Shown: positions 34,424 through 45,364 of the stretch, piece after piece
Layout of the letters: each line of letters opens with the position of its first letter
How positions within the stretch are numbered: position 1 is the stretch's first letter
Notes under the pieces: generated by a model
Database searches by the model: none
What the model saw: only the letters and a program-made list of their open reading frames with translations
What the model was told of the DNA's origin: nothing
Origin: Burkholderia vietnamiensis LMG 10929
GTDB taxonomy: Bacteria > Pseudomonadota > Gammaproteobacteria > Burkholderiales > Burkholderiaceae
DNA length: 64,000 bases
Assembly: GCF_000959445.1 (NCBI RefSeq)
Contig: NZ_CP009631.1
Span: 372,001-436,000 of the forward strand
Direction: 5' to 3'
Translations under genes and position numbers: made by a program

Positions 34424-34617
34424 GCCGGCAAATACGTCGCATGACGCCAGCCGTGTCGAGTAGCACCCTGCGGTCTGGAACGCTGCGCGCAAAGAAGCTC
34501 CCATGCCGCAGCCCTCCCCGATGCCACAGCAAAGGCTGGCCTTGCGTTCAATGAAAAGTGACTTTGGACGGTCAAAAATCGCACCGCGCCATTCACCTGC
34601 GAAGCCTCCCGGCAACT

Positions 34618-34635
34618 TTGACAGGGTAGTTACCC
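34618..34635. promoter_or_regulatory. Candidate -35 box and palindrome upstream of PAAR gene
   Basis: TTGACA at 34618-34623 is directly followed by the perfect palindrome GGGTAGTTACCC (arms GGGTA/TACCC). It lies about 50 bases upstream of the PAAR start, which also has a good AGAGGA ribosome binding site. A matching -10 box is not obvious. The palindrome could bind a repressor. Confidence 0.35.
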
Positions 34636-34685
34636 TTATTCGGTGCGTGCTACAGTCCTCGCAAAACTTCAACAGAGGATTCGGC

Positions 34686-35213
34686 ATGAGTTCTGCGTTC
34701 ATTCGGGAAGGCGATACGACTTCGCACGGTGGCCGGGTGCTCGCCTGCACGTCTACCAACCTCGTCTTCGGCAAGCCACTCGCGCTCGAGGGCGACATGG
34801 TGTCGTGTCCCAAGTGCAGCGGCGTCTACCCAATCATCGGCGTCCGCGTTCGCAGCATGACGTTTGGCGGCCGGGCTGTGGCGACCGAAGGCGACAAGAC
34901 TGCATGCGGTGCGACGCTGATAGCATCGCAAGGCATGGCGACGGTAGAGCCGACCTCCGGCGCAGGCGGCTCGGTTGGCGCAGGCAAAAGTGTGGTCACG
35001 CAGACGACCGCTCAAGACGATGGCGCATATCGCGGCCGCTTCCAGCTCGTCGACGACAAGACACGCGCGCCGATCCCGAATCACCCATACACGGTCACGT
35101 CGGCGGACGGCCAAACGATCCAGGGCACGACGGACGCGAGCGGCCACACCGATTGGATCAGCAGTAACCAAGCTGCATCGCTGTCGTTCCATCAGCCCGG
35201 GAGCGATGCATGA
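34686..35213 (+). CDS. PAAR-domain spike-tip protein with C-terminal extension
   Basis: The 175-residue protein begins MSSAFIREGDTTSHGGRVL and shows the PAAR pattern with metal-binding residues in HGG, CPKC and KTACGA. PAAR proteins cap VgrG and carry effectors. After residue 90 there is a small beta-rich extension (GRFQLVDDKTRAPIPNHPY), probably an effector-linking domain. The stop overlaps the next gene by 4 bases. The start is set by AGAGGATTCGGC before the ATG; the open frame upstream is not protein-like. Confidence 0.88.
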   Translation: MSSAFIREGDTTSHGGRVLACTSTNLVFGKPLALEGDMVSCPKCSGVYPIIGVRVRSMTFGGRAVATEGDKTACGATLIASQGMATVEPTSGAGGSVGAGKSVVTQTTAQDDGAYRGRFQLVDDKTRAPIPNHPYTVTSADGQTIQGTTDASGHTDWISSNQAASLSFHQPGSDA

Positions 35214-35950
35214 CCGGCCCCTACTCCCCAGGGTCGTCAACTGGGGGCTCGAGCACCGGTGGCCAGACAACGCAGGTTGGATTAAGCGCCTCCAAACTCT
35301 CCCCGAAGGACCGGAAAGTTCTGTGTCATACGTTCTGCGAGTGCCGTCGGATCGGCGTCGCGACGAAAGCCGGAACAATCCAGCGGCAGCGCTGCGTCGA
35401 AATGCGCCTCGGGCTGCCGAACGAGGTGTCGAAGATGCAGACGGGCGTTCCAACAGAATACCGGCCGGAACAACCGTACGATATGACGACGAATCCACCC
35501 GAGCCGATCATGGACTACGACGATCCGCTAGAGCCCAATACGGGCATTCGCCAGTGGATCAAGGACGTATGGCCCAGCAAGGGCAAGAAATACGAGAAAG
35601 GCGACGTCCGCCGCCCTGACGTCGTCATCGTGAACGACCCGTCGAAACCTCCCGAGCAATCAAATATCAAGACCGTCGTGGAAATGAAATTCCCCGGCGA
35701 CAGCTACGGCCCCGACCAGGAAGACGATTACATCGAAATCGCGGGCAGCCCGTCGAAGTTTGTCCACCTCGGCGCAGCCGATTGCGGATGTGGTGACGAC
35801 GACGGCCAGAAGGAAACTTCGCGCTCGAAGCAATCCGCGCGACAATCCGAGCTTGACGACTTGTTCGGCGGCAATAGTAGCGCGCCCGGAGACCCACCGC
35901 TCCCGACCACGCCCTCGTTCCCGCCGCCTGCACTCCCGCTCCCGCTTTGA
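35210..35950 (+). CDS. Putative T6SS nuclease effector, PD-(D/E)XK / VRR-NUC-like
   Basis: The 246-residue protein has a Gly/Ser/Thr-rich start, a Cys-containing segment (LCHTFCECRR) and then a nuclease-like core. RRPDVVIVNDPS is followed after about 17 residues by TVVEMKFPGD, which fits the D...E-x-K active site of PD-(D/E)XK enzymes such as VRR-NUC. The C-terminus is Pro-rich. It overlaps the PAAR gene and is followed 4 bases later by a DUF3396 immunity gene, the usual order of PAAR, toxin and immunity. DNA degradation in the target cell is inferred. Confidence 0.75.
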   Translation: MTGPYSPGSSTGGSSTGGQTTQVGLSASKLSPKDRKVLCHTFCECRRIGVATKAGTIQRQRCVEMRLGLPNEVSKMQTGVPTEYRPEQPYDMTTNPPEPIMDYDDPLEPNTGIRQWIKDVWPSKGKKYEKGDVRRPDVVIVNDPSKPPEQSNIKTVVEMKFPGDSYGPDQEDDYIEIAGSPSKFVHLGAADCGCGDDDGQKETSRSKQSARQSELDDLFGGNSSAPGDPPLPTTPSFPPPALPLPL

Positions 35951-35954
35951 CGCC

Positions 35955-37073
35955 ATGACGAACGACGAAATTGAAGCTTGGGCCAAAGATCCGCGCCGTG
36001 CGGACACAATGCCTTTCGGACTTTACGAGCCCGCGCACCAAAAAGGGATTACAGGGGCCGCCCTTGTGGTGCGGGGCGTGCTCTACTTCCGCAACGGTTT
36101 CACGTCGGAGGTTCGGCAAGCGCTGGTGCGCTGCTTCAAGCAGTACAGCGCGGCGATTGATGAGTATCAGCACGCGCTCGAAGTGGCGGCCGGCCAGACG
36201 CCGTCGAAGTTCGGGCCGCTGCGTTGGTTCTATTCCGAGGGAGAAGAACCGATCCAGTACGACAAGTCTCCGGGATTCGAAAGTCTCGCGACGAGCGTCC
36301 CCGCCGACGAGGCCCTTGCGGTCGCGATGACCAGCGCCGAGCACAAGCTCGCGACCGGGTTCTATGAATTCACGGTGTTCGCGCTTAGCGAAAAGAAGGC
36401 TGCACGGAAACGCGGGCTCGACGGGCTGGCCTTCACGGTGCCACGAGCATTTATCGCACACCGCCCCGGCGTATTCGAAGCGATGTTCCGCGCGTTCGCT
36501 GAAGCGCTGCCGACGGTTAGCGGCCATGGAGGACTAGCCGTGAACGTGCCGCCAATGGGGCGGCGACCGAACGAAGCCAGCGAGTATTTCTACGCGCGCC
36601 GGTTCGGGCCAGGCATCGATGTCGGCGATCCAATGCGCTCGACCGTTCGAAAGCTCGACACGAAGATCAAGACCGTTGACTGGCTCAACGCGCTCGATGC
36701 GGACTTAGTCACGGCTGTCGGCGGCGCATCGGCACTCGGACTCCCGCCAGATTGGTTCGCCCGTATTCCACTGGGCAACGGAGGCTTAATCATTCAAGCC
36801 GGCGTCGCCCCGCAGTCCGGCGTATCAAATGGCCCCGGCATACCCGTATCGCCGCCGGCCGCGTACGTCATTCTGAATCGCGCACTGCGGCCGATCATCG
36901 CGGACGACGTCGATACGCTGCAAGACGGGACACTGGACAGTACGGCACCTCTGCTAAACACAGTCGTAGCAACCGAAAGCTGGTTGCGCCGGTTCAACGT
37001 ACAAGACGATCAACTCAACGACTTCTGGGTCGAGCTACATAAGACGCCGAAGCTGGGCGGCGAAACTGCCTGA
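35955..37073 (+). CDS. DUF3396-family T6SS immunity protein
   Basis: The 372-residue protein matches the type VI immunity (DUF3396) family, seen in VRGVLYFRNGFTSEVRQALVRC, LRWFYSEGEEP and WFARIPLGNGGLIIQAG. DUF3396 proteins pair with nuclease-like T6SS effectors encoded just upstream, as here. No signal peptide, so it should act in the cytoplasm. The ATG at 35955 is preferred to the longer open frame because that frame overlaps the effector coding sequence. Confidence 0.82.
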   Translation: MTNDEIEAWAKDPRRADTMPFGLYEPAHQKGITGAALVVRGVLYFRNGFTSEVRQALVRCFKQYSAAIDEYQHALEVAAGQTPSKFGPLRWFYSEGEEPIQYDKSPGFESLATSVPADEALAVAMTSAEHKLATGFYEFTVFALSEKKAARKRGLDGLAFTVPRAFIAHRPGVFEAMFRAFAEALPTVSGHGGLAVNVPPMGRRPNEASEYFYARRFGPGIDVGDPMRSTVRKLDTKIKTVDWLNALDADLVTAVGGASALGLPPDWFARIPLGNGGLIIQAGVAPQSGVSNGPGIPVSPPAAYVILNRALRPIIADDVDTLQDGTLDSTAPLLNTVVATESWLRRFNVQDDQLNDFWVELHKTPKLGGETA

Positions 37074-37270
37074 TGTGGAGACCCGAGAGCGGCTTGTGAT
37101 CGACCATACGCAACAACGAGCAACATGCTTCAGTGGGGGGCACTTACCAACACAAACCTACCACTCGATCCTCCAAACTTCGAACGTTGGCTCGTCGAAA
37201 GCAGACGCTAAACGCCGCGCAAATAATGTGAAATCCCGAACTGGTCTCACTCAGCAGCTCCGGCGCACTC

Positions 37271-39604
37271 TTAACGGCCATGGCATTTTTTGTACTTTAA
37301 GCCACTGCCACACGGACACGGATCATTCCGCCCCAGCTTTTTGGTCTTCGCAGGCGATACGACATTTTTCGGCTGGTTGAAATTCACTGTCCGCTTAGGT
37401 TGGGCCATTCGCGTAGCGTCTTCGTAAATATGGGCGTTTTCTTCCGTTCGCTCAGTCGGTATGTTGACCACGAATGACTGCGCCCGATGGTAGGTTCCAT
37501 CGGCACTAGCCTCTGCCACAATGCCAACGACATTAGAAGCCTTGACGCCCACAGCGGCGGCACTGGCTTTGTCATTCACTTTGCCCCAATCAACTTGGTG
37601 GTTGTGTTGTTGAAGCCAGACGAAGAGCGGTTCACCGTCCCCGCACAGAACAAAGTAACGAGCGGGGTGCTGGTTCAGGGTTTGGCGAAGGTCGAACAGC
37701 ATCTTAGCTAGGTTACTCCGCCCCTCCTCTCCCAAGTCTCGGATATGACTCTCCGCTGAAAGCCATCCGCGTGCTCGGGTGCCGTCAAGCGCTCCGAGCA
37801 GCTTCCGCACCTCCTTCGGGAAGTCTTGCGTCGGAAACGGCCGGCTTTCCCAGTCCTCACCCTCGAAACTCTTGTCGACGATGTCGCTCATGCCGCTCCA
37901 GATGACCATGTTCATCTTGCCGTCCTTCAGTTGATCGGCAATGTCCTGATCGAAGCGGTTCTTCTTCAGATACGCGCCCAAGTGGTCGAGCTCGTCAAAT
38001 AAATGAGCGCGACGCGTCCCCGCCACGGCCTGCCGCACTTCCATGTAGTGGGCGAACTCGCCCGGTGTGGGCAGGAAGCGCTTGAGGACAAACAGGTCAT
38101 CAATGGAGAGAGAGATAAAGGCATGCCGTCCAAGCAACGGCTCAACCTGCGGTAGCTCCTTACAGTACGTGGAAAAAGGTGAGAACGACTCGACCGTCAG
38201 CCCGATCGGTACCATCACGCGGTAGTCAGCGCGGCGGACTCGGCCGCACTCTTCGTATTTACCGTCCACCAAGTGATACAGAGGTACTTCGTCCGACGAG
38301 TTCAGATAATTGAAGAAGCGCTCACATTGCTTGTAGGCCTTGAGCACCAAGTCCTGTACGGACTGGGCGTGGCGGCCGAAATCAAGCGCTGGCGATGCGA
38401 TGGTGGCAGCCGCACCGGCCTTGGCTTCAACCAAGAACAACACGTCGTCGACCAGGATGAGGGTATCGTTTTCGGACCACTGCTTGCTGGAAGGATCCTT
38501 GTAGTAGACCTCCTGGAAAACCGTGGCGTCGGGAAGCTGGGCGGCCAGAATGTCGGCGAAGGCAGCTTCGCTCATTGTCTTCTGCCGACCTTCAAAGGTC
38601 TTCTTGTAGTCAGGTCTTCGCTGAAGGAGGTTGTAGAGAAGCGCACGATACCCCGCATCGCGGGCGAGGCACGGGTCGACGGCATAGTAGTCCGATCCAA
38701 GCTGGATTAGTGGTTTCTTCCGGGCAGGCAGTGTCCGATAGGGTGTCCCCGCAAAATCGCCCGCTGCGAAAAACTCGGTTTCTTCTCCGCGCTGGTACGC
38801 TAGGTCCGCCAACAGCGTCGGCGGCAGCTTCGTGTGACGGCTCACATTAGCGATGCCGCCCCGGAACATGTCATCCATCGCCCGCCCGGCGTCTTTCGAT
38901 TGTTCAGCATTGGCCGCAACCCACGCCTGCATGACGTCTTCCAGAGGTTGGTCCTGTGTCGCAGCGAAGGCCTGTGCAGCCTCAAACTGCTTCATCATCA
39001 CCGTGATAGCGTCGGCATGCCCAGAACGCGTGGCGTTGGCCATGGCCTGGAAACCTTCTGCGATATCGGCGGCTTCAACGCCGTACACTTCTTTCAGGAC
39101 GTCATTGTGAGGCGTCAGAACGTAGCGGTAGAACTCGCCTTCCAAGACTTGGTAGCGGTTCCCGCGTAGCGTGACCCAAGTGGATTTCGCGTGGAATTCA
39201 ATGTCAGCCGTGTCGGGACCGAAAACGCCGTCTTTGGTATCCGCGGACGTGGCCATGGCAAAAAACAAGGCCTGCTGTCGCAGTTTGCGGCCAAGTTCAT
39301 ATAGCTCGGCGCACTTGGCTTCGTCGAATGCCAAGTCCGCAGGGGCGACATCTGACGCGAGAACCGCGTGCACGTACTCCAACAGAAACTGATTCTCGTT
39401 GATCAGATCATCCGGGCCGTCCTCTTTGTATTGATCCTGAGTGTCGCTTTGGTCTGCCATCGCTTTGATCATGCGCTGGGCGTAGATGTAGCCAAGCAGA
39501 TCATGCGGAGGCATGGCGACAATCAGCTCGCGCATTCGGGCGGCAACGGCTTCCATGTCCGTCAACAAGGAAGCAGCAGCCTCCTTCCGGTTTATTTCAT
39601 CCAT
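37271..39604 (-). CDS. SEC-C motif protein with nuclease-like core
   Basis: The 777-residue protein is not a named family to me. The last 20 residues are a clear SEC-C zinc motif (GRNDPCPCGSGLKYKKCHG). Around residue 390-420 it has NDTLILVDDVLFLVEAKAG, which fits a PD-(D/E)XK nuclease (Asp, then E-x-K). The N-terminal third is helical. It is divergent from a PHP-SMC ATPase gene with 224 bases between. Base composition looks less GC-rich than the T6SS genes, in line with transfer. Large SEC-C proteins with nuclease domains occur in defence islands; that role here is inference. Confidence 0.6.
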   Translation of the reverse strand: MDEINRKEAAASLLTDMEAVAARMRELIVAMPPHDLLGYIYAQRMIKAMADQSDTQDQYKEDGPDDLINENQFLLEYVHAVLASDVAPADLAFDEAKCAELYELGRKLRQQALFFAMATSADTKDGVFGPDTADIEFHAKSTWVTLRGNRYQVLEGEFYRYVLTPHNDVLKEVYGVEAADIAEGFQAMANATRSGHADAITVMMKQFEAAQAFAATQDQPLEDVMQAWVAANAEQSKDAGRAMDDMFRGGIANVSRHTKLPPTLLADLAYQRGEETEFFAAGDFAGTPYRTLPARKKPLIQLGSDYYAVDPCLARDAGYRALLYNLLQRRPDYKKTFEGRQKTMSEAAFADILAAQLPDATVFQEVYYKDPSSKQWSENDTLILVDDVLFLVEAKAGAAATIASPALDFGRHAQSVQDLVLKAYKQCERFFNYLNSSDEVPLYHLVDGKYEECGRVRRADYRVMVPIGLTVESFSPFSTYCKELPQVEPLLGRHAFISLSIDDLFVLKRFLPTPGEFAHYMEVRQAVAGTRRAHLFDELDHLGAYLKKNRFDQDIADQLKDGKMNMVIWSGMSDIVDKSFEGEDWESRPFPTQDFPKEVRKLLGALDGTRARGWLSAESHIRDLGEEGRSNLAKMLFDLRQTLNQHPARYFVLCGDGEPLFVWLQQHNHQVDWGKVNDKASAAAVGVKASNVVGIVAEASADGTYHRAQSFVVNIPTERTEENAHIYEDATRMAQPKRTVNFNQPKNVVSPAKTKKLGRNDPCPCGSGLKYKKCHGR

Positions 39605-39828
39605 AATTATTTATGCCTGATGTTGCCGAGGCCCCGATCCATGAAGAGTCGATTCTAGCCTCGGTGCACGTAATTGATAGCAACGTAAGAGACCGGTTCT
39701 GTGTGCAAGTCGCGATCGCTTGACCGAGAGCAGCATCATCCCGTGGTCGCTCGCGAGTTGGAAGTAGTCATACGGCGGCCACGGTCGAACATGATTAGCC
39801 GCACCTGGCCAAGAGATTCAGGGGGAAT
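39605..39828. promoter_or_regulatory. Divergent promoter region of the putative defence pair
   Basis: The 224 bases between the SEC-C gene and the PHP-SMC gene must drive both. CAGGGGGAAT just before the ATG at 39829 is a strong ribosome binding site. The minus-strand start is preceded by an AT-rich stretch without a clear one. No operator or strong promoter pair was identified. Confidence 0.4.
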
Positions 39829-42483
39829 ATGAGCGATCAATACACTTACGCGAGATTTTGGCGCTGCGCATTACAGGTCAATCCTGTCGGCTACAACGAA
39901 ACTTACAGAGGTGCCGACCACGGACTGGGCGAAGATGGATACAACCAAGCATTGCTCCAAAAATGCCTTGAGCTACATATCTCGGTTGTTGGCTTGGCCG
40001 ATCATGGTAGCGTCGCCAGTGTCGATGCCTTGCGTCAGGTGCTACAGCCGCATGGGATTGTGGTGTTCCCCGGCTTCGAGATCTCGTCGAACGACAAGAC
40101 CCATTATGTCTGCCTGTTTTCGGAGCAAACGACAGGACAGCAACTCGAACGATACCTTGGCAGCCTCGATCTTCTTGACCCAACAGATGGGGTTCGGCCG
40201 TCTCGATTAAGTTCTGAGCAATTGATCGAGAAAGTCGATCAACTCGGAGGCTTCATCTATGCTGCGCACTGCACGTCGGACAGTGGCCTCCTGAAGAACC
40301 GGCTCAACCATGTGTGGAAGCTTCCCAAGTTGCGCGCTGCCCAGATTCCGGGACCGATAGACGACTTGGCGGGGGTGGAAGGCAATTTCTACCGCAAGGT
40401 GCTGCTGAACAAGGATGATGCCTACCGGCGCGAGCGGCCTGTAGCTGTCATCAATGCCAAAGATGTCGCCAAGCCCGAGGACTTGCAGCAGCCTGGCGCC
40501 ACTTGTCTCATCAAGATGACGCGGCCCAATTTCGCTGCGTTCAAGGTCGCATTCCTCGATCCGGGATCGCGAGTCCGCCTCAATTCCCAAAGGGCCCAAA
40601 GCCCAATTGGCAAGGTTATTCGCATGACGGTGGTCGGTGGCTACCTTGATGGTGTCCGGGTGGATTTTTCCGATCATCTCAACACTGTCATCGGTGGACG
40701 CGGAACGGGGAAATCGACCTTGCTCGAATGCTTGCGCTACGCCTTGGACTTTCCGCCCAAAGGCAAGCAGGCCCAAAAGCTCCACCAAGACATCATCAAG
40801 GAGAACCTTGGTCGATCAGCCGGTCGAGTTGAGCTTACAGTGGTGTCATCTGCTCAGAACGGCAAGCAGTACGCCATCTCCCGCCGTTACGGCGAGCCGC
40901 CGATGGTGCGGGACATGGACGACAATGTCTCCACCCTACTACCACGCGATTTGCTGCCGGGCGTCGACATCTATGGCCAGAACGAGATTTACGAGTTGGC
41001 TCAAGATGAAACCAGCCGGGTGCAATTGCTGGATCGCTTCCTTCCTCAAGATGGGGGCTACGAGGCCAAGAGCGCAGATGTGCACCGGCGCTTGAAGGAG
41101 AACCAGCAGACGCTCGCGAAATCCTTGACCGATCTCGACGAGCTGAAAGCGCAGGTTGAGCGCCTGCCGAAGCTGGAAGAACAGCTACGCGGGTTTGACG
41201 AGCTGGGGATCAAAGAGAAGCTGGCCAATACTTCGTTGCTTGCTCGTGAGCGTGAGATTGCCAAGACTGCAAGCGAGAGCGTGCAGAGCTTTCGAGACGC
41301 GATTGCCAACCTTCGTGACAGCTTGCCCGACCTCGCCTTCATCAACGACGAAGCGCTCGATGGGTTGCCAGACGCAGCTCAGCTACTTGCTATGCGCACG
41401 ACACTAGATGGGATTAAGCACGGCCTTACAACCCATCTGGCAGCTATGCAGGCCCTGTTGGATGACGGTGCGGAACAGTTCGCCACCCACCAGGAGGCGT
41501 GGCAGCAGGCCGTTAAGGAGCATGATGCCGTGTTGGAAAAGGCGCTTAGGACGTTGCCTGCAACTGCTGGAAAGAGCGGGCAGGAGGTCGGTGCGGCCTA
41601 CCAGCGCCTTATGATCGAGATCGAGCGCATCAAGCCGATGAAATCGCGAGTAGCTGCCCATGAGTCTCAGCTCGACGCCTTGCGACAGGAGCGACGCAAT
41701 CTGTTGGCCGAATTATCAGATTTGCGAGGACAACGCATACGCGCCTTGCAGAAGGCCGCGAAGAAGCTGAGCAAGCGGCTTGAAGGCAAGCTCAAGGTGG
41801 AAATCGTACCGGAAGCCGACCGCACTCCGCTGATGACGTTCCTTCTGGGATGCAAGCTGGACGGTGTCGGTGAAAAGCGGCTCTCATTTGTTCATGAAGC
41901 GGAGACGATCAGTCCGTTGTCGTTCGCCCAGTCGATTCAAAAAGGGGCGGCCCACGTTCAACTAGATTGGGGGGTCACGCAGATGGTGGCCGATGCTCTC
42001 ACCAAGCTCCAATCCACCCAGCTCATGGAGCTGGAGGCGTTGGAGTTGGAGCACCGCGTGGACATTTTCTTGAATGTCGCGCATGGCCAAGCAGATCCGG
42101 TGTTTCGTCCGCTCAACAAACTCTCGACAGGCCAGCAGTGCACAGCAATTCTGCACATGTTGCTTTTGGAAAACGTCGACCCGCTTCTCATGGATCAGCC
42201 GGAGGACAATCTGGACAACGCTTTCATCGCGGACCGGATCGTCACCGAACTGAGGGAGGCCAAGACGAGTCGGCAATTCGTGTTCGCGACACACAACGCC
42301 AACATTCCCGTGTTTGGAGACGCCGAATGGATCGGAGTGTTTACGGCTGCTGAAAACCATGGGTGTCTCGGACTGGAAGCGCAAGGCTCGATTGACGTGC
42401 CTGTGATCCGAGATCAGGTGGCTAGCATTCTAGAAGGCGGGCGCGATGCCTTCATCCAGCGCAAAGAGAAATATGAGTTCTAG
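39829..42483 (+). CDS. PHP-SMC ATPase, TrlF-like
   Basis: The 884-residue protein joins an N-terminal PHP phosphoesterase-like domain (GLADHGSVASVDAL near 55, FPGFEIS near 80, IYAAHC near 145) to an SMC/RecN-like ATPase. Walker A is GGRGTGKST (about 288), coiled coils span about 400-640, the signature is LSTGQQCTA (about 765) and Walker B is LLMDQPEDNLDN (about 785). This is the layout of TrlF-family AAA-like ATPases. PHP domains often hydrolyse phosphodiester bonds, so a DNA- or RNA-cleaving sensor is plausible. With the divergent SEC-C/nuclease gene it looks like a two-gene defence unit on the island. Confidence 0.78.
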   Translation: MSDQYTYARFWRCALQVNPVGYNETYRGADHGLGEDGYNQALLQKCLELHISVVGLADHGSVASVDALRQVLQPHGIVVFPGFEISSNDKTHYVCLFSEQTTGQQLERYLGSLDLLDPTDGVRPSRLSSEQLIEKVDQLGGFIYAAHCTSDSGLLKNRLNHVWKLPKLRAAQIPGPIDDLAGVEGNFYRKVLLNKDDAYRRERPVAVINAKDVAKPEDLQQPGATCLIKMTRPNFAAFKVAFLDPGSRVRLNSQRAQSPIGKVIRMTVVGGYLDGVRVDFSDHLNTVIGGRGTGKSTLLECLRYALDFPPKGKQAQKLHQDIIKENLGRSAGRVELTVVSSAQNGKQYAISRRYGEPPMVRDMDDNVSTLLPRDLLPGVDIYGQNEIYELAQDETSRVQLLDRFLPQDGGYEAKSADVHRRLKENQQTLAKSLTDLDELKAQVERLPKLEEQLRGFDELGIKEKLANTSLLAREREIAKTASESVQSFRDAIANLRDSLPDLAFINDEALDGLPDAAQLLAMRTTLDGIKHGLTTHLAAMQALLDDGAEQFATHQEAWQQAVKEHDAVLEKALRTLPATAGKSGQEVGAAYQRLMIEIERIKPMKSRVAAHESQLDALRQERRNLLAELSDLRGQRIRALQKAAKKLSKRLEGKLKVEIVPEADRTPLMTFLLGCKLDGVGEKRLSFVHEAETISPLSFAQSIQKGAAHVQLDWGVTQMVADALTKLQSTQLMELEALELEHRVDIFLNVAHGQADPVFRPLNKLSTGQQCTAILHMLLLENVDPLLMDQPEDNLDNAFIADRIVTELREAKTSRQFVFATHNANIPVFGDAEWIGVFTAAENHGCLGLEAQGSIDVPVIRDQVASILEGGRDAFIQRKEKYEF

Positions 42484-42564: not shown

Positions 42565-42908
42565 TTACGCCGCGTCGCGCACCCGCATGATCGTCTGACG
42601 GCTTGTGCCGAATTGTCGGGCAAGCGCGGCCACGCTCGCCCCCGCGTCCAGCTCGCGCAGCACGTCCGCCCGTTGTTCGTCCGACAGGGCGGACGGCCGC
42701 CCCATCGCCTTGCCTTCCGCCTTAGCGCGAGCGATGCCGGCATGCGTTCGCTCGATCAGCAGATCGCGTTCGAACTCGGCCACCGCGTTCAACACCTGCA
42801 TCGTCATCCGGCCGGCCGCGCTCGTCAGATCGACGCCGCCCAAGGCGAGACAATGCACCCGGATACCGCGTTCGGCCAAACCCTCGACCGTGGCCCGCAC
42901 GTCCATTG
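42565..42908 (-). pseudogene. Serine recombinase, C-terminal part
   Basis: The fragment starts at [19 protein letters not shown] and contains [19 protein letters not shown] (the E helix of resolvases), then a C-terminal helix-turn-helix ([18 protein letters not shown]). It continues the N-terminal part at 44866-45102; removing the IS21-family element and one CATTG copy restores LGRNAMDVRATV in frame. Confidence 0.88.
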
Positions 42909-43000
42909 TGTTGGGCGCAAAGTAATAATGAGCCACTTCGCGCGAAGTAAATCTAAGCCACCTTTCAGTACAGTCAGCCTTTTGCGCGCAAAGGCTGGCG

Positions 43001-44799
<1,799 letters not shown>

Positions 44800-44865
44800 C
44801 GACTGGCTCAGTTTTACTTTGCGCGATCAGGCGCGAAGTGGCTCAGATTTCAAATGCGTTTGACA

Positions 44866-45102
44866 CATTGCATTGCGGCCGAGCCGATCGAGCTTCGTCA
44901 CGATCAACACATCGCCTTCTTCCATCCGATCAAGTAACTTTGCGAAGCCCGGCCGCTGATCGGCGCTCACGCTCCCTGAGATGCTTTCCGACACGACGCG
45001 GCGCTTGTCGACCGAGAAGCCGGCCGCCTCGATCTCGCGTAACTGGTTCGTGGTGGTCTGGTCGGACGTACTGACGCGGGCATAAGCGAAGGTTCGGGAC
45101 AT
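44866..45102 (-). pseudogene. Serine recombinase, N-terminal catalytic part
   Basis: From ATG 45102 it reads [20 protein letters not shown] with the catalytic Ser in RVSTSDQ, then [16 protein letters not shown], the resolvase/invertase core. The gene is split by the IS21-family element after GRNAM. The rest is at 42565-42908. The rejoined protein of about 190 residues matches Tn3/plasmid-type resolvases. Confidence 0.88.
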
Positions 45103-45118
45103 ATCGGGCACCCAATCT

Positions 45119-45221
45119 GTACGAAATAGATGTCCGAATATAAATGCCTGTCCAAAATACTTCAACCCTTACTTTCGGACAGATCGGAAAGGGGATGTCC
45201 GAAAGGGATCGGTTTCGGACA
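45119..45221. promoter_or_regulatory. Candidate res site upstream of the serine recombinase
   Basis: TGTCCGAAA (45196-45204) and TTTCGGACA (45213-45221) form an inverted pair spanning 26 bases. TGTCCAAAA (45149) and TTTCGGACA (45173-45181) form a second pair spanning 33 bases. TGTACGAAA and TGTCCGAATA (45119-45140) lie nearest the gene. Three subsites of unequal length directly upstream of a resolvase gene match the layout of Tn3-type res. Confidence 0.55.
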
Positions 45222-45364
45222 GTCTATCTCGGGCGTAATCTGGCGGCCGTCACGTGCTGGCGTCCATCGTTACGCTTGGCGAAGTGGATGACCGACGATC
45301 GCCCGTGGTTCGAATCGTGCAATCACACACGATGGCGCGGTTCGCGGATAGTGCGGACCGGACA

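What the first reader, a model, noticed from the sequence alone, without database searches (positions are those of the whole stretch)
37271..42483. Divergent pair: PHP-SMC ATPase and SEC-C/nuclease-like protein, candidate two-gene defence system
A TrlF-like PHP-SMC ATPase with complete Walker motifs and signature faces a 777-residue protein with a VEAKAG nuclease motif and a terminal SEC-C zinc motif. Both lie on an island, share a promoter region and seem lower in GC. A sensor ATPase beside a nuclease is a common defence design. I do not know this exact pair as a described system.
Basis: partly seen in the sequence, partly recalled or inferred. Interest (0 to 1): 0.75.

Follow-up and report, generated by a model that had tools for sequence, protein, structure and literature searches.

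The report
Two solo defence genes, side by side
Two real bacterial genes, a motor-like ATPase and a zinc-tailed nucleic-acid-cutting enzyme, sit back to back here, but in the relatives examined each occurs without the other, so they look like two separate candidate anti-virus genes that landed in one mobile patch, and the cutting enzyme belongs to a little-studied family worth testing.

Summary

The two-gene idea fails its own refutation test. Of 43 loci with a relative of the nuclease and 12 with a relative of the ATPase, none holds both. DNA similarity to relatives stops near each gene's own ends. No other gene family recurs near the nuclease in more than 5 of 33 loci. TrlF relatives often sit beside methylase, restriction, BrxL or SLFN_AlbA_2 genes.

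The parts
37271..39604 (-). 777-aa PD-(D/E)XK (NERD-like) nuclease with C-terminal SEC-C zinc motif; helical N-terminal part (about residues 1-290), nuclease core about 331-470, C-terminal domain about 597-712, SEC-C 759-777
39829..42483 (+). 884-aa TrlF-family ATPase: degenerate PHP domain (about 1-250) plus SMC/ABC-type ATPase
39605..39828 (.). 224-bp divergent intergenic gap; its middle (about 39650-39795) matches none of the 47 loci compared
42565..43098 (-). Serine resolvase piece (C-terminal part), next to an IS21 insertion; described only
43001..44799 (+). IS21-family element, istA 43001-44029 and istB 44026-44799
44827..45165 (-). Serine resolvase piece (N-terminal part); described only
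45289..45289 (.). Right edge of the variable block: similarity to five genus relatives starts exactly here
37131..37135 (.). End of left-flank (TsiV effector-immunity block) similarity in the two closest-matching genus relatives; in most others it ends near the TsiV gene end (37073) or earlier

Best explanation
Two independent one-gene modules sit next to each other in a mobile block of about 8 kb (about 37.13-45.29 kb) within type VI secretion cargo. (1) The 777-aa protein is most likely a single-gene anti-phage nuclease: the helical N-terminal half senses an infection cue or holds the enzyme off, the PD-(D/E)XK core cuts nucleic acid, and the SEC-C zinc tail docks on a partner protein. Shown: conserved nuclease residues, confident PD-(D/E)XK model, SEC-C motif, spread without a fixed partner, neighbourhoods somewhat richer in known defence genes. 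Inferred: the cue, the target and the tail's role. (2) The 884-aa protein is a TrlF-family SMC-like ATPase that probably inspects DNA, as its cousin Ppl does (inferred); because its clade lacks the PHP H-x-H motif, it may act with altered chemistry or with a partner (methylase or SLFN_AlbA_2 protein) that is not beside it here.
For: Independence: 0 of 43 and 0 of 12 loci with both genes; at most 5 of 33 loci share any other gene family; in 25 of 33 genome loci one DNA alignment spans the nuclease gene and reaches at most 45 bp upstream and 133 bp downstream of it, and in the 5 close TrlF relatives similarity reaches at most 33 bp upstream. Defence context of the nuclease: in an every-fourth sample of 30 of its 118 neighbours (sampling checked), 6 hit PADLOC models other than the generic mads ATPases (DitA, AbiEi, PDC-S06, type III methylase, PifA, PDC-M01B) against 4 to 8 of 115 control ORFs, Fisher p 0.006 to 0.042. 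Among 6 annotated loci, 3 have named abortive-infection or exclusion genes within 10 kb: Lit; AbiE, AbiV and CBASS; AbiE. Nuclease. TrlF: a restriction-modification or BREX gene directly adjacent in 6 of 12 loci, and a TrlF relative between gpA and gpQ of a P2-type phage without such a partner.
Against: Counting mads hits too, the enrichment is 7 of 30 against up to 13 or 17 of 115, p 0.13 or 0.28. Ten further neighbours picked by hand gave 0 of 10 at E <= 1e-20; adding them gives 6 of 40, p 0.019 to 0.20. The 43 loci have uneven flanks (3.4 to 39 kb in total, 39 of 43 with 10 kb or more), so a partner farther away would be missed. Close relatives dominate the sample, and the TrlF sample is small. 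No activity was measured. Divergent neighbours can still cooperate without being a fixed pair.
Confidence: 0.68

Rival explanations
1. The two genes form a genuine two-gene defence system in this lineage: the ATPase senses and the divergent nuclease executes.
For: Divergent genes 224 bp apart with similar low GC; the TrlF clade has lost PHP H-x-H, so a separate effector would make sense; 99%-identical copies of both proteins carry the same species name.
Against: 0 of 43 and 0 of 12 loci with both; DNA similarity confined to each gene and its close edges; other genes sit beside TrlF elsewhere.
Confidence: 0.1
2. The 777-aa protein serves a mobile element (transfer, stability or exclusion of rival elements) rather than defending against phages.
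For: In E. coli it lies in an integrated element with trb genes beside guaA; three plasmid records hold a relative over at least 80% of its length; many hosts over several proteobacterial classes; the defence enrichment of its neighbours is modest.
Against: No fixed transfer-gene neighbour; neighbours include named defence genes.
Confidence: 0.2
3. The 777-aa protein is a protein-export or quality-control factor, as the database names YecA family or SecA subunit suggest.
For: SEC-C motif at the C-terminus; the SecA metal-binding domain binds SecB, and YecA is suggested in a preprint cited there to be a chaperone (PMC8076867, passages).
Against: Matches to such proteins are confined to the C-terminal tail, about 20 to 70 residues; two distant relatives lack the motif in the same reading frame while keeping the nuclease core; patchy distribution: only the own genome has more than the tail among 101 genomes searched.
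Confidence: 0.05

Closest known systems
Ppl (single-gene PHP-NTPase defence, E. coli)
   Same: Same PHP plus NTPase layout; the TrlF protein scores 171.6 bits with the Ppl model
   Different: Far below the Ppl cut-off of 1000 bits; PHP H-x-H replaced by Q-x-N, while Ppl is described as a PHP ssDNA exonuclease (PMC12904381, passages)
TrlF family (NCBIfam NF045780)
   Same: Above the family cut-off: 564 against 350 bits
   Different: Neither the methylase nor the SLFN_AlbA_2 gene found beside some relatives is next to it here
AAA-like ATPase plus RNA-binding protein cluster in the RptR paper (PMC12255303)
   Same: In 4 of 12 TrlF loci a SLFN_AlbA_2 or RNA-binding gene follows, in two of them within hsd loci
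   Different: That partner is not beside TrlF here; that the published ATPase is TrlF is my inference from one passage
Upx (PDB 9wuf)
Shedu SduA and NERD-type nucleases
   Different: The window protein itself shows no NERD hit at E <= 1; long N-terminal domain and SEC-C tail

Membership tests
TrlF family (NF045780) | Whole-protein score above 350 bits | tested here: met
   564.2 bits over residues 7-883
Ppl | NF042955 score above 1000 bits | tested here: not met
   171.6 bits
Ppl | PHP H-x-H metal motif (a defining feature by recall) | tested here: not met
   Q16-V-N18 in the window; Q and N in 69 of 70 aligned proteins, the last row gapped there; H-x-H is present in two distant TrlF relatives
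PD-(D/E)XK nucleases | Conserved acidic residues, E-x-K and alpha-beta-beta-beta-alpha-beta core | tested here: met
NERD (PF08378) | Pfam gathering score 22.1 bits | tested here: not met
   No hit for the window protein at E <= 1; distant relatives score 24.1 and 22.1
SEC-C (PF02810) | Pfam gathering score 20.4 bits | tested here: met
   40.4 bits at residues 759-777
Upx | Sequence and fold similarity over the Upx protein | tested here: inconclusive
A conserved two-gene TrlF plus SEC-C nuclease system | Recurrent neighbourhood | tested here: not met
   0 of 43 and 0 of 12 loci
Anti-phage defence | Protection in a plating test | not testable with these tools
   None; only context

The most novel reading that the evidence does not exclude
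The 777-aa protein founds an undescribed, widely transferred family of single-gene defence nucleases, a compact structural cousin of Upx, that uses a SecA-type zinc tail to dock on SecB, the export machinery or the ribosome, so that the nuclease fires when phage takeover disturbs that site. Separately, the TrlF clade beside it carries a PHP domain with a rebuilt Q-x-N metal site.
Probability: 0.2. Interest if true: 0.65.

Novelty: new variant of a known kind. Interest (0 to 1): 0.4.

Why it matters
If the nuclease defends cells alone, it adds a solo effector found across alpha-, beta-, gamma- and other proteobacteria, at up to 87% identity between distant hosts, under names that point elsewhere (YecA family, SecA subunit). 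It would also raise a testable question: why join a nuclease to the zinc tail of the protein-export motor. The pair result matters as a caution: two defence-like genes facing each other in one genome need not be one system.

Tried and rejected
Pair hypothesis: rejected. Fixed partner for the nuclease: none found. Phage records (E <= 1e-5): the nuclease had only two short C-terminal matches among 50,697 records; TrlF matched 7 records, 4 of them over 80% or more. Viral contigs: nuclease two loci, one complete; TrlF none. Promoter scan and Rfam on the locus: nothing. My first enrichment reading was too strong: 242 PADLOC families in the neighbour set against 8 in the control counts models, not proteins, so I replaced it by a sampled count of proteins. 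For that reason the confidence of the best explanation went from 0.72 to 0.68. SecA neighbourhoods (20 stretches) were fetched as a control and not used. One TrlF relative on a short stretch (L070, 4.4 kb) was not counted among the 12; it showed no nuclease match. The neighbours of one counted TrlF locus (L076) were not annotated. Literature: searches; nearly all of the 20 papers listed (of 149) for 'TrlF' concern an unrelated spectroscopy method. In the DefensePredictor paper (PMC13092281, term search of the main text only) SEC-C, YecA, NERD, PHP and TrlF do not occur. One pangenome paper (PMC12409351, one passage) lists a NERD-domain nuclease in an association cluster with phage nodes in Vibrio; whether it is this family is unknown. 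Attempts to reach an Upx family by trying accession numbers gave PP2C, TerY and IteS. Foldseek libraries pdb and viral could not be run, so only the VIA-align second look is available. A second structure job (TrlF) was not run.

Full report
Observation. The two ORFs are open at the stated coordinates. The plus-strand protein (884 aa) is a TrlF-family ATPase: NF045780 564 bits against a cut-off of 350, with AAA_23 and AAA_21 matches above and SMC_N below their cut-offs. The Walker A, signature and Walker B residues checked and the late histidine are invariant in 70 of 70 aligned proteins. The minus-strand protein (777 aa) ends in a SEC-C motif (40.4 bits, cut-off 20.4). Its nuclease residues E346, E378, D380, E393 and K395, and the four SEC-C metal residues, are invariant in 119 of 119 aligned proteins. 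In an alignment of nine proteins reaching down to about 20% identity, E346, E378, D380 and K395 stay invariant in 9 of 9; position 393 is Q in one of the nine.

TrlF clade. The canonical PHP start H-x-H is present in two distant TrlF relatives but is Q-V-N in the window and the four nearer relatives aligned with it. In the 70-sequence alignment Q16 and N18 occur in 69 of 70 (one row gapped), and position 214, where one distant relative has the last PHP histidine, is A in 69 and C in one; D58, H59, E84, H92, H147 and D212 are kept in 70 of 70. Which residues bind metal in PHP enzymes is recalled knowledge. A review describes E. coli Ppl as a single-gene PHP ssDNA exonuclease with an NTPase domain (PMC12904381, passages only). 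The Ppl model scores 171.6 bits here against a cut-off of 1000, so this is a cousin and not a Ppl.

Are they a pair? The genome-contig scan with the nuclease gave 33 loci with 61-87% identity, in alpha-, beta-, gamma- and other proteobacteria. With plasmid, E. coli, viral-contig and unnamed-genome loci added there are 43 loci of the nuclease family and 12 of TrlF (bit score over 90); none holds both, and the window itself is not counted. Flanks total 3.4 to 39 kb in the nuclease loci, 10 kb or more in 39 of 43. In 25 of the 33 genome loci one DNA alignment spans the whole nuclease gene: it starts between 37138 and 37277 and ends between 39577 and 39649. In the five close TrlF relatives similarity starts between 39796 and 39841 and ends at 42481-42483. 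The middle of the gap matches none of the 47 loci compared. No other gene family recurs in more than 5 of 33 nuclease loci. In the genus, TrlF was found in 2 of 65 genomes, the own one included, and more than the SEC-C tail of the nuclease only in the own genome among 101 searched. At E <= 1e-100, TrlF was found in 5 of 399 genomes of the order; at E <= 1e-30, the nuclease profile in 3 of 369 of the class.

What goes with TrlF instead. A restriction-modification or BREX gene is directly adjacent in 6 of 12 loci: a 1084-aa Eco57I-like methylase in two, a type ISP enzyme, BrxL, hsdS and hsdR. A SLFN_AlbA_2 or RNA-binding gene follows in 4 of 12, two of these being among the six. The neighbours of one of the 12 (L076) were not annotated. 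A paper on the regulator RptR mentions a two-gene cluster of an RNA-binding protein and an AAA-like ATPase at such sites (PMC12255303, one passage); that this ATPase is TrlF is my inference. Outside the 12, a TrlF relative sits without such a partner between gpA and gpQ of a P2-type Yersinia phage.

Defence context of the nuclease. From the 33 genome loci I took up to two ORFs of 150-1300 aa on each side, 118 in all. An every-fourth sample of 30 (checked) gave 6 with PADLOC hits at E <= 1e-10 other than the generic mads ATPases, and one more with mads hits only. One of 116 control ORFs was left out to meet a size limit. With mads hits the contrast is 7 of 30 against up to 13 or 17 of 115, p 0.13 or 0.28. 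Ten other neighbours chosen by hand gave 0 of 10 at the stricter E <= 1e-20; adding them gives p 0.019 to 0.20. Six annotated loci: Lit next door; AbiE, AbiV and CBASS; AbiE; DUF262 genes and a second NERD/SEC-C protein in an integrated element; two show no named phage-defence gene. The evidence is weak to moderate.

Setting. GC is 56.9% and 56.5% against 63.1%. Left of the block lie PAAR, VRR-NUC and TsiV genes, whose similarity to two relatives ends at 37131-37135; on the right, similarity to five relatives starts exactly at 45289. In those relatives about 1.57 kb or more further left is conserved among themselves; in the own genome it was found only as diverged pieces (64-67% identity) elsewhere and two matches under 50 bases. 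An IS21 element lies between two pieces of a resolvase gene; these are described only. That the block is mobile is inferred from these edges and from the spread of its genes.

Host. Near-identical proteins (99%) are named Burkholderia pseudomallei. The species of the window is not established, and its proteins are not identical to those records. For that reason bench tests are proposed only with relatives from harmless bacteria.

Verdict. Observation sound; pair not supported; each gene is a credible solo defence gene, unproven. The nuclease is the more interesting of the two. No held paper describing it was found, but the library lacks most subscription journals.

Noticed in passing
42565-45165: An IS21 element (istA 43001-44029, istB 44026-44799) lies between the two pieces of a serine resolvase gene on the minus strand.
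   Followed up: partly
45289: Five genus relatives share a sharp similarity edge exactly here; they carry about 1.57 kb or more of conserved sequence to the left that the window lacks at this place.
   Followed up: partly
34503-37073: PAAR, VRR-NUC and TsiV genes: by their Pfam names a type VI secretion nuclease effector with its immunity gene, directly left of the block.
   Followed up: partly
L054:17112-21972: In E. coli EcPF16 the nuclease relative is in tandem with a 716-aa NERD plus SEC-C protein about 25% alike over its C-terminal part, inside an integrated element beside guaA; a partial DNA match to a related gene was found in 7 of 5426 E. coli genomes.
   Followed up: partly
L161:5989-8607: A TrlF relative sits between gpA and gpQ in a P2-type Yersinia phage, annotated as chromosome partition protein Smc.
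   Followed up: no
L058:5358-8718: In a Lactococcus plasmid the NERD gene and a separate SEC-C gene are parted by an IS30 transposase gene.
   Followed up: no
L060:6655-12655 and L074:7379-13379: A 1084-aa Eco57I-like methylase directly precedes TrlF on the same strand in two relatives: a possible methylase-TrlF module.
   Followed up: partly
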